DNA from: Siphonodentalium dalli
Taxonomy: Eukaryota > Mollusca > Scaphopoda > Gadilida > Siphonodentaliidae
Reading direction: 5' to 3'
DNA length: 64,000 nt
NCBI GenBank assembly: GCA_032622095.1
Contig: CP136062.1
Coordinates: 154,562,875 to 154,626,874, forward strand
In this document: one piece after another, positions 41,717-59,700 of the stretch
Layout of the letters: each line of letters starts with the position of its first letter
Numbering within the stretch: the first letter of the stretch is position 1
Translations under genes and position numbers: made by a program
Notes under the pieces: model-generated
What the model was told of the DNA's origin: nothing
Database searches by the model: none
Seen by the model: only the letters and a program-made list of their open reading frames with translations

Positions 41717-41753
<37 letters not shown>

Positions 41754-44700: not shown

Positions 44701-47700
44701 CAGTAACGTCATTGTCGGCAGAAAAGCTTCAGCAAGATTCAAGATCTCCAACATCAATAAGGTCTGTACGGTGACTGTACCATAACTTCTTATCATATTA
44801 TCATAAGGTCTGTACGGTGACTGTACCATAACTTCTTATCATAAGGTGTGTATGGTGACTGTACCATAACTTCTTATCATAAGGTCTGTACGGTGACTGT
44901 ACCATAACGTCTTATCATAAGGTCTGTACAGTGACTATACCATAACTTCTTATCATAAGGTGTGTATGGTGACTGTACCATAACTTCTTATTATAAGGTC
45001 TGTACGGTGACTGTACCATAACGTCTTATCATAAGGTATGTACGGTGACTGTACCATAACTTCTTATCATACGGTCTGTACAGTGACTGTACCATAACTT
45101 CTTATCATAAGGTCTGTACGGTGACTGTACCATAATTTATTATCATAAGGTCTGTACGGTGACTATACCATAACTTCTTATCATAAGGTCTGTACGGTGA
45201 CTGTACCATAACTTCTCTCTTCTTAACTACCATTTCCTATGAATTTCCCTGATAAAATTGGCGATAACGAATTGGCCATACCATACTGACCCGGTTCAAA
45301 GCCCATGTCCGTGTTTAGGCCCACCCATATCTTTTGACCAAATTCCATGCACAGGGGTATATTCGTGTTTAAGCCCACCCCAAATTTTGTCAATTCCAGC
45401 AATGGTAAGTAAGTATTTGCTAATGATACTCCCCAAATAAATAATTCCAATATAACGGGAAGTATATTCGCAAACGAATAACATCTTATCTGTATCATTA
45501 CTACAGTTGCGATGCAAGGCGCGCATGACGTCCATAACTGGTTCAAAATCAATGACTGAACTTATGTCACATGCAAACGTGTGCAAAATCAAAACAACAT
45601 TCCAATGAACAATGTATATTCTTGCGCACTATCAAAAAATAGTTCCGAATTTTTATTATTTATCCCTACCGGTATTTGATTGTGGTTAATATAGTAAAAC
45701 TTATCACAAAGTAACCAATATATATTTGTTGTGTATTTATTATATAATTATTTTAAAAATGCAGGTGTAAGAGATTTTGTCCATTGAATTCAATTTACGT
45801 TAGACATATGTGCATGTAATTGCAGGTTGGGAGAATAATTTAGCAAATCAAGCTAATCGTGTGACAAAGATACACTTGCAGGTTGGGAGAATTTACTCAA
45901 GAAAGCTAATTGTCGGACACAAATCCAACATATATCTGAATTATGCAGTTAAGCGATATGCAATTAACTGATATTGACTGTAATAGCTCTAATTTATCAC
46001 TAAATCAATATTTTTATTTTAGGTTCCCGTTGATGTTAACTTCACATTGAAGACACAGGCTGTAAAACATGCTAATAAGAATATTGAGATATTTGAGGTC
46101 GATCCACCAAGACTTCAGATCGGAACACACAGTCACATCTATGTTAACGTGACCTTTACCCCTCCATCAATGCAAACGTACACCACAACATTCGAGGCAG
46201 CCATTGAGGGTGTAGCACAGAATCAGGCAAAGGGCAAATCACTGATATTCGAGATATGTGGTGATGGGAATTTGCCAAGAATAGCTATCGCCAAGCCAAC
46301 CATTCGAAACAAGAGAGGACAACCTCTGTTGCTGTTTAAGAAAATGCTGCTGGGAAGAACGGAGGCTCTGCCTTTAACGCTCATCAATGATGGATTTCTA
46401 CCGAGCAAGGTGAGACTGAAAATTCATGATATTTAACCTTGTCTTTATACTTTGGAATGATCTATTATTCATTTGGAGGGATGTTGAGATGATAAAAGCT
46501 AACTGCAGATAAATAAATGTGCAGAAGGAGCTATTTATTGAGGGAAATGTTTAGATAATAAGTTCAACAAACGACCTACAGTCGTTTTTTAAACTCATGA
46601 AAATGCTCGATTCGCTAGGGCCCTATTTATGGGGGTATTGATTTTGATTTGAATCTTCTGTTCTAATTCTACCATCATATGACATCAAGTGAATCTCTTC
46701 ACACATGTACACCCATTGTTCTATGTATGCATAACGGTTCCCTTAGGGCCTTGGATTCAAGGAATGGTCTTGAATTCAATGAGTTCAAGCTGGAAAATCT
46801 TAAAATTGCACATGTAGACATTGAAAAGCCTTGAATTCCCATGAGAAAAGGAGTTCTCGTAGTGAGCGTAATTAATTGCACAGTATTTTCCCCAGTTTAC
46901 GCTGACACTCCCTGACTGCGATGATCCCAGGGAAAATCCTTGCATTTGATTCATATATGCTTTGAAAATCTGTCAAAAATGTTGCAAAACAGCCTTGAAT
47001 AACCTTGAGTTTGACCTATCGTTGACTGAACCCTGACTATATATACAGTAATGCTCTAAGTAATGGACTTCTTAACCACAGCCATATTTCCGACTAAATC
47101 CTGAAAAGTTACCCATAATTCTGCTGTGGTTAAGAAGTCAATTACTTAGAGCATTACTGTATCTTTTATGTCAGCCGTGTTCTCTGTTCTCTAGGTTGCC
47201 ATTGACCTGATAGATCCAGATAAAGCATTCTCCATAAAAGCTACAGGAGACACGAGGGCTGTCATGCCAGAAAAAGATTCTGACCAAGGTACACATAGAT
47301 GTAACATGTTATATTAATATCTTCATCTTATAAATACATACGATATCTACCCATTTGTTTGGTTCAGCTATGGCTACAAGTTATCCATTTTTAGTGGATT
47401 CTCTTATATATGCGAGTCTCCCATATGGAGCCTCGCATATATAAGAGAATTACGCGAGGCTCCCTATGGGAGACTCGCATATATAAGAAAATTCATTGGC
47501 ACAGCATTGTCACTAAATTTTCGGATGCCTAGATCTAGGCATGGAAGGGTTAAATATTTAGAAGCCCAATACAGAATGTTGTAAAGGTATGGTTGACAGC
47601 ATATTTTAGTTTGCCAGTTGAATTGTGGTTGACAGCCACACATACACCTACAGGCCTTGAAATAGTGTGTCTGTCCTTTGCAGAATGAGGTCCCCAGAGG

Positions 47701-53700: not shown

Positions 53701-56700
53701 GTCTTCTGAATTGCGGGAGTAAATAAGTCCTCATGGGAAGGACTGGTTGATGATATATCAAATTTCAAGACTATATTTTGGTGCTTGTATTCTATGATTG
53801 TTTCTTATTTTCTTCAGATTGACACTTGAAAACAAGGGACAAGTACAAATGGATTACAACTGGCAGGTTGTCATGGAGAATTTCACACCAGTTCTGCAGC
53901 GACAAGTGACGTTTTTCTCAGAGGGAGAGAGACCTGAATCTCGCGTCGGGTTGGAAGAATCAAGCTACGTACCATTCATGGTGGAACCATCCTATGGAAC
54001 AGTGCCCGCCGGCAAGAAAGAAACTGTGGCTGTGAAATTCTCTCCCCTTGATAGTAATGATTACGAGGGGAGACTCATTTGCAGGTGAGGATCGATCGTT
54101 CATTGAAAATTTGTATTGCCACTGCTAGTCAAGATACATCATACACTGTTCAGTACCACGAGTTAACCCTTCAATGACTGGAGCTTCCTGAAATATTTTG
54201 AAAACCCTATGCCAATGCATTTTCTTATATATGCAAGTCTCCCATATATAAGAGAATACATTGGCCTAACAATATTTACCTTCACCTTGTAAGCCAGTGC
54301 ATTCTATTGTAAATGTGAGGCCCTCTATGGGAGACTCACATATATAAGAAAATTCACTGGCATATGATCTCTGATGCTGCACCAGCGCAGCTCCCGTCAT
54401 GAAAGGGTTAACACTTCATCTTTGTTGTGCTATATTCATTTTATTGGCGAATTAAAATTTCCGGAAATTAATTGAGTACTTATGGGAGCATGCGCAATAT
54501 TTATCATTATCAAAAACTTCACATGGCCCGCTTTGATTTATTATATATAGAGAGCGGTATTGGACCAGTAAAATAGGTTGGCATGACATTCCACACATCA
54601 TAGTTGTCCATCATGCTCACTGGTTGGAAAACAACTGCTTTTGTCGTCTTTTGCTGGAAATACAACTTATGTTGTCAAATTTCAAGTTACATATCTTGTT
54701 ATGTTTAACTCTTAGCATATATCAGAGAATACATTGGCCTAACTATATATAACATTGACCTTGTAAGCCAGTGCATTCTCTTATAAATATATGTGAGGCT
54801 CCCTATCGGAAACTTAAATATATAAGAGAATGCTTGGCACAGGATTTTTAATGCACCAGTGCAGCTCCCATCATGAATGGGTTAATAATAACTTTATTTG
54901 ACTTCAATATGGTTCTTTATATTTCTAGCATTGCCAACTTGGACAAATCTGAACAAGGACCTGTGATTGGTGTGAAAGGTAAAAGCGTCATGCCTTATTG
55001 TCACTTTGAGCTGGAGGACTCGGACTACATCTCGGGGTCGCGCAGAAATCCCGAGATGCACGGTCCAGGTGGCGCTCCATCGGGATCGACATTGGATCTC
55101 AACACGCGGGTGCTCGAGTTCAACAACATCGGTGTCAGCGTGAAGAGTAGAAGGTAAGACTACAATTGATTTATCTATTACCCTTTCATGATGGGAGCAG
55201 CGCTGGTCCAGCATTAAAGATCATGTGCCAGTGCATTCTCTTATATATGCGAGTCTCCCATAGGAAGCCTCCATATATAAGAGAATGCACAGGCTTACCA
55301 GGTCACACTCATGACAGAATTAAGGCATTAAATATGGTCTTTCTCTTCCTATAACAATTTTTCTATAGTTTCCTTTCTAAAAATAAGAAATATGAAGCAA
55401 AGACCCCTGTCTGGAAACGCTTCTATCAATTAATATTGATTTTATATCTAATTTTCTTGCATAATACATACAATCAATTTGTGACATGTTTAGGCTCACC
55501 GAAACATTCACAGCATATAGGAAGCGGATAACTCTTATCTCTGAGATCGCCTGAAAGTTTTATGACGGCCTGTTCTGAAAATAGGAAAGAAAAATGTCCC
55601 AGTTGATTGTTATTATTTTGGAAAGTTTTGATATAAAATCAATATTAGTTGATTTTTGGGACATATTGACTCATATTCAAGCCTTGAATTTGTGTATCTG
55701 ACATTTGCAGAATGAGGTCCACGTAGTGTGAATTTAGTGATGTGCAGGCAAGCATCACCAAATTCATCCTCTGGGGACCTCATTCTGCTTAGGCCTCATC
55801 TTCTGGGAAGTATCTATTGTCTCAAATTAACATTGTTTTTTCTCTGTTTCCCTTCTGTTCAGTTTCTATATCCCCTAATTTGCAGAAGATATAATGCATA
55901 ATCGAGGTGACCATCACCAATTTCAACTGGGGATCTTCACTCTGATCCTATAGTAGTATTTATTTTGAACTTATAAATAAGATGGCCTTTGTCTTTTCAT
56001 TATTTTATCATATGACATAAATTATTATTATTTATCTTATTTAAAAATAATTATTATAGCTGCCTGTAATAGTTGTTCCTATGTTTTGCAGGATGTTCAG
56101 CGTTGTGAACCCAACAAACACACCATTTTCATTTGAATGGATATGTGAAGATGAACTGGATCCAAAAAATCCACAGTGCTTCCAGTGTGTTGTACAGAAG
56201 GGGGTCATAAAGGGAGGAAAACAAGCCACAGTAAGTTCTATAACCAGCAGAGGGTCATAAAGGGAGGAAAACAATTCACCGTAAGTTACATAACCATGAG
56301 GAGGGGGTCATAAATGGATGAAAACAATTCACCGTAAGTTCCATAACCATGAGGGGGGGGGGGGGGGTCATAATTGGAGGAAAACAATTTACCGTAAGTT
56401 CTATAACCAGGAGGGGGTCATAAAGGGAGAAAATTAATTCATCGTAAGTTCTATATAACCAGCAGGGGGTCATTAAGGGAATAAAACACTAAATTATATT
56501 TTCAGAAGGAGAGAAAAACAATTCAGGGTATCACTAGATTGGGGCTGATAATTCTCTTATTAATTAGCTATAGGTAATCAGCTGCAAAAAGTAGAAAGCT
56601 GCCCGCATCATAAGTAACAAAAGTCGGCCAATAAGTAAAAAAAATCGGCCAATAAGTAGAAGCTGCCAATAAATCGACGGTAACTTAAATGACATCATAG

Positions 56701-59700
56701 GTATTTAGCTCAATCGGCAAAGAATATTGGGTGGACGGAAGATAGATTACAGTCTCTTTCAGATGAATCACCTTGCGGACTGTCACTGATTTTGGGAGTA
56801 GATATACGTGGATGAACTACATGTATCCATATCAATACCATTCCCAGTGTAAACAGACAGTACTGTGGAATCGCTGCAAGTTCTTAACAAAGTTCACAAG
56901 AATAAAAATTGCTGGAATAATTTTTAATTTAAGATCATGTGCCAGTGCATTTTCTAATATATGTGAGTCTCCCATAATCAATGAAAAACATGCTCACTGT
57001 CCGCCATCTTGGATTTTACTCTTTGCATGACTAAATACTTTGGCATGCCCTACAGTCAACATTTCTTATCCAATTGATCCCAAACTTCATATAGCTCTTC
57101 GGCTTGACCTCTGGTATTAAACATTTCAACTTTACATTTTCCTTATCACTCCATTGACTGTAATGATTGTATGACATATTTCCCCTCTCCAAGTTGAGTT
57201 ACAGTGAGTTACAGATACTTTAATTTTATTACAGGTTGGTTTCGAGTTCTTATCAAACACAATAGATATTGTGGAATCATTCTGGACATTCTCTATACCA
57301 GAACAGAACATTTTGGTGCCGTTCCTTCTCGTTGGTAACACTAAGGATCCTCTCGTCATTATGGACAGATCTCATCTCAACTTCAAGCCATTACTCATTG
57401 GTAAGTTTAACTTCAAGCCATTACTCATTGGTAAGTTTAACTTCAAGCCATTGCTCATTGGTAAGTTTAACTTCAAGCCATTACTCATTGGTAAGTTTAA
57501 CTTCAAGCCATTACTCATTGGTAAGTTTAACTTCAAGCCATTGCTCATTGGTAAGTTTAACTTCAAGCCATTGCTCATTGGTAAGTTTAACTTCAAGCCA
57601 TTGCTCATTGGTAAGTTTAACTTCAAGCCATTGCTCATTGGTAAGTTTAACTTCAAGCCATTACTCATTGGTAAGTTTAACTTCAAGCCATTGCTCATTG
57701 GTAAGTTTAACTTCAAGCCATTACTCATTGGTAAGTTTAACTTCAAGCCATTGCTCATTGGTAAGTTTAACTTCAAGCCATTGCTCATTGGTAAGTTTAA
57801 CTTCAAGCCATTGCTCATTGGTAAGTTTACAGTATAATTCTTATTCCACATTCACTGCTCTGAAAACAAAAATATTTGGGTTTAAGTTTTGGAAATGACC
57901 AAGATAAAAAAAAAAAGAGACCAGAATCTCGATCCAACTGTTTTAATTTTTTTCCTCAAAAAGTGTGCTTCGGAATGAATAAACAAAATGAAGTAGATAT
58001 GAACTGCTGTTATATGCATGCTTTCCCTTAAATCAATTGTTTGTAAGTTGATTGATTGATTGATTGATTGGGGTTTAATGTCGCTTTCAGCAACTAATGT
58101 CATATCACGACATTGCCAGTTTTAGTTGTGGAGGAAATCTGCACACTTACGGCTAATCGAACAGTCATTTCAATGGCTGATAAACTCGTTGACCATTTGC
58201 GGCAAACCACTGGCGAGTAATTGGCAACTCCATCAGATAATGATTTTGAGTTGCAAAGTCCATGATGGAAAGAGACGGCTTGGAGTTGTACCCCTAACCG
58301 ACTGAGCTACCGAGCACCCCACCCCACCCCCCCCAGTTAAAGTTGAACAAAGTTTTAAACACATTACATAGAGTTATTCCTCTTCTGTTTGAGCTTTATG
58401 GAATTGCCCTTTGAATTTTGCTTCATATCTCCCAAGACTGACACAATTACTAGTTGGATTTTTGTCATGGCCGTAAGCCATTTTGTATGTTAGCCACTAC
58501 AAATAATAATAAAACATATGTACACTTGGAGTTTATTGTCTTTTTATGGTGGGAAAACTTTAAAAACCAAGGTGATGTCATGTACCACTTTGGAAGTAAT
58601 CAGTTATACCCCCATCCAAAAGATGGGGGCCCATTGGGGATGTCTACTTGATTACATGCGTCCGTCAGTGTGTCCGTCCATCTGCTCAAATATCTCAACA
58701 ATGGGTTATCAGATCTCGAGGAAATTTGGTATGCACGTTTGGCATCAGGAGGGCTTTCAAAAGAGTGTTCATTGACATTGTTCACCCTTTCTGTTCAAGA
58801 GTTATTCCTCTTTGTTTATCTGACAATGTTGGATTTCCGTCCCTCCACTCATATATCTCAACCATAGGTTATCGGATCTCAATGAAATTTGGTATGCAGG
58901 TTTGGCATCAGGATGGCTTCAAAAAGAGGGTTCATTGACATTGTTCACATTTTCCGTTCTGGTTTCCGACCAACCCATATTTCAATTTGTCACCATGGGG
59001 GTATCTATATATATTTTTTATCCCACATACCTGGGTATCACTTTTTCCACCACCAATCCTGGTAACAGCACCCAGCTTAGTATAAATACTAATACTCCAA
59101 CTATTTTTTTGTAGGGCAAGAGGCTTGTGAAGAGATTAACATAACAAACAAGGAATCAGAACCTCTACAAATACAGTTCATAGAAGACTCGTGTCACTCA
59201 GCTGGATACTCCGCCCACATGCGAGTGGAACCAATGACAGCGGTGATTCAACCAAACTCAAGGTAATTTGTAAATAATGGTCCTTTCTTCATAGTGATCC
59301 ATTCAGCTTAAGATTTGCTTTCTCTAGAGTGGTTTCAATTATCAGCCAAGAGTCATTCCAGTCCAAAGTGCAAACTCAAAGATGTAACACTGATCGCAAG
59401 CCCGCAAATATTGTGTTTGTTATTTCCAGAATGAGGTCCCCAGAGGGTTGAATTTAGTGATGCTATCTGGCACAGAAGTATAAAATTAACTATAGTCTCA
59501 AATTTTATTTCCATTAAATGTCTAGATTTATGGCATATATATGATCACATAAATTTCCATATATTCCACATATACCTGGGATTTACGGACACTTATATTA
59601 TTCCACATTTATGAGCAAAATATGTGTTAATTTTGATTTTAAAAATGCGTGCAATGTACGGCTCATATATTCAAAATAAAAACATTTATGGATGTGTTAA

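What the first reader, a model, noticed from the sequence alone, without database searches (positions are those of the whole stretch)
57379..57828. Fifteen in-frame copies of a splice donor that could vary an ASH domain of HYDIN by ten-residue steps
Seen: the last 22 bases of exon 24 plus the first 8 bases of the intron are repeated 15 times. Every copy carries ATTG|GTAAGT, the period is 30 bp, and the frame is open across the array. The only differences between copies are TTA/TTG (both Leu). Inference: use of any later donor would splice correctly to exon 25 and insert n copies of KFNFKPLLIG at the first strand of an ASH domain. Fifteen equivalent products (0-14 extra units) are possible from one exon. 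The purely silent variation fits either very recent expansion or constraint on the peptide.
Basis: partly seen in the sequence, partly recalled or inferred. Interest (0 to 1): 0.88.

Follow-up and report, generated by a model that had tools for sequence, protein, structure and literature searches.

The report
Repeated splice donor in HYDIN gene
A short repeat has copied the end of one exon of the cilium gene HYDIN, with its splice signal, fifteen times; the first copy probably does the normal work, the others could add ten-residue steps to the protein, and similar arrays sit at exon ends of other genes in this animal.

Summary
At 57379-57828 a 30-bp unit occurs 15 times head to tail, differing at one silent A/G site; each copy carries TTG|GTAAGT. 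It covers the last 22 bases of a HYDIN exon and the first 8 of its intron, and the exon frame stays open. Splicing from the FIRST donor gives a protein that aligns without gaps at this join to animal and algal HYDIN. No RNA was available, so use of any donor is inferred.

New evidence: (1) the preceding HYDIN exon also ends in a donor-spanning array (56195-56488, five GTAAGT, diverged); its donors 2-5 lead to a stop. (2) Comparable arrays sit at exon ends of a GFPT gene and a CADPS gene; in CADPS, read-through past the first donor stops at once. These suggest that the first donor usually wins and the rest stays intron.

The silent variation and open frame are weak evidence. Human IFI6 is a known precedent (a minisatellite supplying several donors). 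Most likely this is a young, nearly neutral, donor-capturing minisatellite with some leaky in-frame isoforms. A weak, unblinded hint that frame-keeping periods are favoured leaves a real isoform ladder open.

The parts
57235..57400 (+).
   Evidence: gap-free alignment of the joined exons to HYDIN chains
57379..57828 (+). Minisatellite, 15 units of 30 bp, AACTTCAAGCCATTRCTCATTGGTAAGTTT, spanning exon end and intron start
57401..57406 (+). Donor 1 (GTAAGT), the one that restores the conserved protein
57431..57826 (+). Donors 2-15 (GTAAGT every 30 bp), each in phase with donor 1
   Evidence: frame open; use not tested
57379..57408 (+). One unit; predicted hairpin that pairs AACUU with AAGUU of the donor, -5.1 kcal/mol
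   Evidence: not unusual against shuffled units
59115..59262 (+).
   Evidence: ends read by eye
56092..56230 (+).
   Evidence: ends read by eye
56195..56488 (+). Second donor-spanning minisatellite: period about 50, five GTAAGT (56231, 56281, 56334, 56394, 56444); donors 2-5 run into the same stop

Best explanation
A tandem duplication took in the last 22 exon bases and the first 8 intron bases of one HYDIN exon and expanded to 15 copies (shown: the structure; inferred: the history). Because the 5'-most copy keeps the original exon end, splicing there leaves the protein unchanged and makes the other 14 copies intron, so the array could grow almost free of selection (inferred). Later donors are the same from -22 to +8, so some leaky use, mainly of the next few, is expected; it would insert 10, 20 ... 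residues and always leave an intact FKPLLIG segment before the next exon, so it may be tolerated (inferred). The same kind of array lies at the preceding HYDIN exon and at exon ends of other genes of this genome (shown by sequence).
For: The first-donor product aligns gap-free to HYDIN at both joins. HYDIN exon 23: donors 2-5, four of four, run into the same stop. GFPT exon (L025 with L036): the first-donor join to the next exon aligns gap-free over 55 columns to 2zj3; donors 6 and 7 are out of frame with it. CADPS exon (L046): read-through meets TAA at the first unit. Minisatellites are dense here: 14 arrays with at least 5 copies and period 20-60 in 180 kb of 18 arbitrary pieces. GGTAAGT in tandem is no commoner than its reversal: 7,791 against 8,910 matches. 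For human IFI6 a paper (PMC4526556, passages read) states that two downstream repeat units serve as donors and three mRNAs result, i.e. few repeats are used.
Against: There is no RNA evidence; first-donor use is inferred. GFPT donors 2-5 are themselves in frame and open, so that array does not by itself exclude in-frame isoforms. Among 30 inspected arrays, those I judged to lie at exon ends had a period divisible by three in 7 of 18 and not divisible in 0 of 12 (one-sided P 0.016), a hint that later donors are used; it is small and unblinded, two of the 12 (L049, L050) were cut at or near the array's own start, and HYDIN exon 23 (period about 50) is a counter-case. Predicted RNA pairing leaves the last donor the most open (0.37-0.40 unpaired against 0.12-0.16 for donors 1-14), which would favour long forms. 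Two of the window's four arrays with at least 4 copies carry GTAAGT against 0 of 16 in the arbitrary pieces.
Confidence: 0.6

Rival explanations
1. Isoform ladder: several donors are used routinely, giving HYDIN proteins with 0 to many extra KFNFKPLLIG units, and the frame-keeping period is under selection because the longer forms are made.
For: Identical donors in phase; open frame; 7 of 18 against 0 of 12 frame hint; in-frame, open units also at L019, L025 (donors 1-5), L040 and L048.
Against: HYDIN exon 23 and CADPS arrays cannot work this way; solved HYDIN chains have no insert; with homology as the only criterion the comparison is 4 of 18 against 0 of 12, and with an open run of 64 codons or more 4 of 18 against 1 of 12.
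Confidence: 0.2
2. Last-donor splicing: pairing between units hides donors 1-14 and the intron-proximal donor 15 is used, so most HYDIN of this individual carries about 140 extra residues.
For: Donor 15 is predicted 0.37-0.40 unpaired against 0.12-0.16 for donors 1-14; 30 other GTAAGT sites of the window have a median of 0.535. Choice between competing donors is known to be shifted by SRSF1 and hnRNP A1 (PMC5585400, passages read).
Against: Shuffled units hide internal donors as well in 33 of 300 and show as large a last-donor difference in 13 of 300; the exon would be 585 nt; a long insert in a conserved axonemal protein is unlikely to be harmless (inference).
Confidence: 0.08
3. Assembly artefact: copies were added or merged by the assembler.
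For: Not tested; no reads are available.
Against: The A/G site gives an irregular pattern over the 15 units (8 runs, 8.2 expected at random), not one block copied; similar arrays occur elsewhere in the assembly.
Confidence: 0.04

Closest known systems
[quoted passage not shown] the paper itself is not held)
   Same: A minisatellite at an exon end whose repeat units serve as splice donors and give isoforms (passage in PMC4526556).
   Different: There, use of downstream units was reported in mRNA. Here the unit is 30 bp (12 bp and 26 copies in IFI6 are recalled, from no call), all 15 donors are the same, the gene is HYDIN, and use is unknown.
Intron gain by tandem duplication of AGGT segments (Rogers model, and fission yeast genes with several 24-bp AGGT duplicates, as told in PMC4974935; passages read)
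   Same: Short tandem copies carrying splice signals become intron without changing the protein.
   Different: Here an existing donor was multiplied and no new acceptor is needed; the unit has no AGGT.
Donor arrays at other exon ends of the same genome: HYDIN exon 23, GFPT (L025), CADPS (L046), NF-X1 type gene (L048)
   Same: The unit holds the last exon bases and the start of the intron, with GTAAGT in most copies.
   Different: Periods of about 50, 27 and 37, 36, and 36; some read-throughs shift frame or stop.

Membership tests
HYDIN | Homology over the exons around the array | tested here: met
   13 pieces taken by eye from open frames of this part of the window and joined, 970 aa: E 7.4e-256 to 9ijj_4G and 8.1e-150 to 7sqc_F0
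ASH / HYDIN Ig-like domain (Pfam) | Score above the curated cut-off for the joined stretch | tested here: not met
   PF21310 20.7 bits against 27; PF22544 13.8 against 25.5
Minisatellite supplying several splice donors (IFI6 type) | Tandem array that begins inside an exon end and runs into the intron | tested here: met
Minisatellite supplying several splice donors (IFI6 type) | Donor consensus in the repeat units | tested here: met
   GTAAGT in 15 of 15 units
Minisatellite supplying several splice donors (IFI6 type) | mRNAs spliced from more than one unit | not testable with these tools
   no RNA data for this genome
Minisatellite supplying several splice donors (IFI6 type) | Copy number varies between individuals | not testable with these tools
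   one assembly held
Intron gain by AGGT duplication (Rogers model) | The duplicated segment holds AGGT and supplies both donor and acceptor | tested here: not met
   no AGGT in the unit; the acceptor used lies at 59114, outside the array

The most novel reading that the evidence does not exclude
In this animal, donor-capturing minisatellites are a recurrent, genome-wide source of protein length ladders: arrays arise at exon ends of conserved genes (HYDIN twice, GFPT, CADPS, an NF-X1 type gene and others), those whose period keeps the frame last longer because later donors are really used, and copy-number variation of the array becomes isoform-length variation, for HYDIN in the axoneme.
Probability: 0.15. 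Interest if true: 0.8.

Novelty: new member of a known kind. Interest (0 to 1): 0.5.

Why it matters
Fifteen identical donors in a row are a natural experiment on how the splicing machinery chooses among equal 5' splice sites: the local sequence cannot discriminate, only position, RNA folding and timing can. Because the same architecture recurs at other exon ends of this genome, the question can be counted: if frame-keeping periods prove enriched at true donors, later donors must be used; if not, the first donor wins.

Tried and rejected
Silent variation as a sign of constraint: weak, since one site varies and 11 of 30 transitions are silent. Open frame as a sign of coding: weak, two of three forward frames and one antisense frame of the array have no stop.

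Dispersed repeat or second HYDIN copy: each array was found at one place and the two exons at one place each.

Donor-specific enrichment of minisatellites: not seen. GGTAAGT three times at spacings of 20-50: 7,791 matches against 8,910 for the reversed pattern. Four copies at a fixed period, real/reversed: 24: 48/104; 27: 5/27; 30: 439/329; 31: 50/131; 32: 266/272; 33: 255/305; 35: 7/137; 36: 129/66. Matches overlap, big arrays dominate, and the place lists were cut at 100 rows.

RNA masking of donors: striking in raw values, not against shuffled units (internal donors as masked in 33 of 300; a single unit in 14 of 300; last-minus-internal difference in 13 of 300).

Protein fold of the repeat: AlphaFold2 without an alignment gives strand after strand, block means 94-98 over most of the array, no PDB match at E 0.001 or below (best 0.11). 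[quoted passage not shown] A neighbouring ASH-like exon folded poorly (pLDDT 54), so the place of the insert in the domain is inferred from sequence alone.

Chance of two donor-spanning arrays: with my own count of 12 donors in 46.0-64.0 kb, 0.50 covered donors expected, P(2 or more) 0.09; with an assumed 28 donors in the whole window, 0.12.

Frame test: 30 arrays inspected (HYDIN exon 24, L019-L021, L024-L035, L039-L052). I judged 7 to lie at exon ends: HYDIN, L025, L046, L048 (homology, L048 just short of the Pfam cut-off) and L019, L040, L041 (open frame). 7 of 18 with periods 24, 27, 30, 36 against 0 of 12 with 31, 32, 35: one-sided P 0.016; without HYDIN 0.026; with HYDIN exon 23 added as frame-breaking 0.058, and 0.089 without HYDIN exon 24. 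Limits: the judgement was mine and unblinded; L041 (57 codons) is inside the null (median 28, 90% 64, 95% 78, 99% 123), and L029 (70 codons, period 31) was not counted; with 64 codons or more as the rule it is 4 of 18 (HYDIN, L019, L040, L048) against 1 of 12 (L029). L049 lies wholly and L050 almost wholly in its array; in L045 no array was found by TRF, and in L048, L026, L034 and L035 the first exact GGTAAGT is not the first copy; L021 was seen only. Big arrays in the lists were left out (C5:1087916; C7:199977084 and 202035964; C1:205713363; C2:19745377 and 218409695; C3:13675332; C1:20205260 and 25802728; C5:14682658; C8:30197009; C6:209829298). Two flanks (L037, L038) were fetched and not analysed.

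Literature: ten searches of an open-licence library. In their listings I saw the IFI6 citations and the AGGT cases, and no title on a donor minisatellite in HYDIN; that is not proof of absence. Passages of PMC12958757 and PMC3549977 were read and do not bear on it.

Full report
What is there. The window lies at C2:154562875-154626874 of a 2.23-Gb genome in 9 contigs. At 57379-57828 there are 15 units of exactly 30 bp. One position varies (A 6, G 9, in the order AAGAAGGGGAGAGGG), and every unit contains TTG|GTAAGT. The first unit covers the last 22 bases of the exon 57235-57400 and the first 8 of its intron. The exon frame is open through the array and stops four residues after it. The gene is HYDIN: 13 pieces taken by eye from open frames and joined (970 aa) match 9ijj_4G at E 7.4e-256 and 7sqc_F0 at 8.1e-150. 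The exon joined to the next at the FIRST donor aligns to both without a gap, so the ancestral exon ended at donor 1. The two exons and the array were each found at one place. The species is not known to me. Names of source organisms of PDB chains are recalled.

A second array. The preceding exon (56092-56230) ends the same way: TRF gives 56195-56488, period 50, 5.6 copies, 79% match, with five GTAAGT. Spliced from its donor 1 it gives the conserved protein. From donors 2-5 all four products meet the same stop. This array is more diverged, so probably older, and cannot give useful isoforms beyond donor 1.

Other genes. Tandem GGTAAGT is common in this genome but no commoner overall than the reversed word. 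I inspected 30 arrays, HYDIN exon 24 among them. Homology supports an exon end at three besides HYDIN. L025 is a GFPT exon (E 8.8e-19 to 2zj3); the next exon was found and the first-donor join aligns gap-free over 55 columns. It has seven donors: 1-5 at 27-bp steps with an open frame, 6 and 7 each 37 bp further on. L048 looks like an NF-X1 type zinc finger exon, 22.5 bits against a cut-off of 22.7. Open frames suggest L019 (235 codons, no Pfam or PDB match), L040 (98) and, weakly, L041 (57), against a null of 28 median, 78 at 95% and 123 at 99%.

How it most likely works. A duplication that takes in an exon end and its donor does no harm if the 5'-most copy is still used: the added copies become intron. 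At HYDIN exon 23 and CADPS the later donors cannot give a working product, and in GFPT they would lengthen or shift a strongly conserved enzyme. That suggests that the first donor normally wins in this genome. For exon 24 the same rule gives mainly unchanged HYDIN with some leaky longer forms. A paper on IFI6 states that two downstream repeat units act as donors and three mRNAs result (PMC4526556, passage), which fits use of a few donors only. All of this is inference about splicing.

What speaks for more. The period keeps the frame and the unit is open; chance would give both in about one unit in six. The frame comparison among inspected arrays is 7 of 18 against 0 of 12 (P 0.016), but it rests on my judgement; stricter rules give 4 of 18 against 0 of 12 (homology) or 4 of 18 against 1 of 12 (open run of 64 codons or more), and HYDIN exon 23 goes the other way. 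Each product would keep one intact FKPLLIG segment before the next exon. By sequence pattern this is the first strand of an Ig-like (ASH) fold, with the insert in the turn after it; that is inferred, since Pfam scores are below cut-off and my model of a sibling exon was poor. RNA pairing leaves the last donor the most open, but shuffled units do nearly as much.

Against known things. Minisatellites that supply several splice donors are known from human IFI6. New here are the gene, the 30-bp unit with 15 identical donors, the sister array one exon upstream, and the recurrence at exon ends of other genes. I file it as a new member of a known kind, with the use of later donors untested.

Noticed in passing
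window 56195-56488: Second donor-spanning minisatellite at the preceding HYDIN exon: five GTAAGT copies, period about 50, diverged and out of frame.
   Followed up: yes
L025 with L036 (G000 C5:10333700-10336100, minus strand): GFPT exon end with seven GTAAGT donors: five at 27-bp in-frame steps, two more each 37 bp further on.
   Followed up: partly
   Followed up: partly
L019 (G000 C2:50418000-50421000, minus strand) and L022: Four perfect 30-bp in-frame units with CATG|GTAAGT at the end of a 235-codon open frame of unknown family; an 856-codon, repeat-rich open frame lies downstream in L022.
   Followed up: partly
L048 (G000 C5:249201800-249202690): NF-X1 type zinc finger exon with a 36-bp array in frame; the first two copies read GTACGT and GTCAGT, later ones GTAAGT.
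   Followed up: partly
L040 (G000 C3:15648600-15649420): 36-bp donor array in frame after a 98-codon open frame rich in cysteine; no Pfam match.
   Followed up: partly
window 44798-45216: 11 copies of a 38-bp unit without GTAAGT in its consensus; its relation to exons was not checked.
   Followed up: no
window 41717-41753: Run of 37 G.
   Followed up: no
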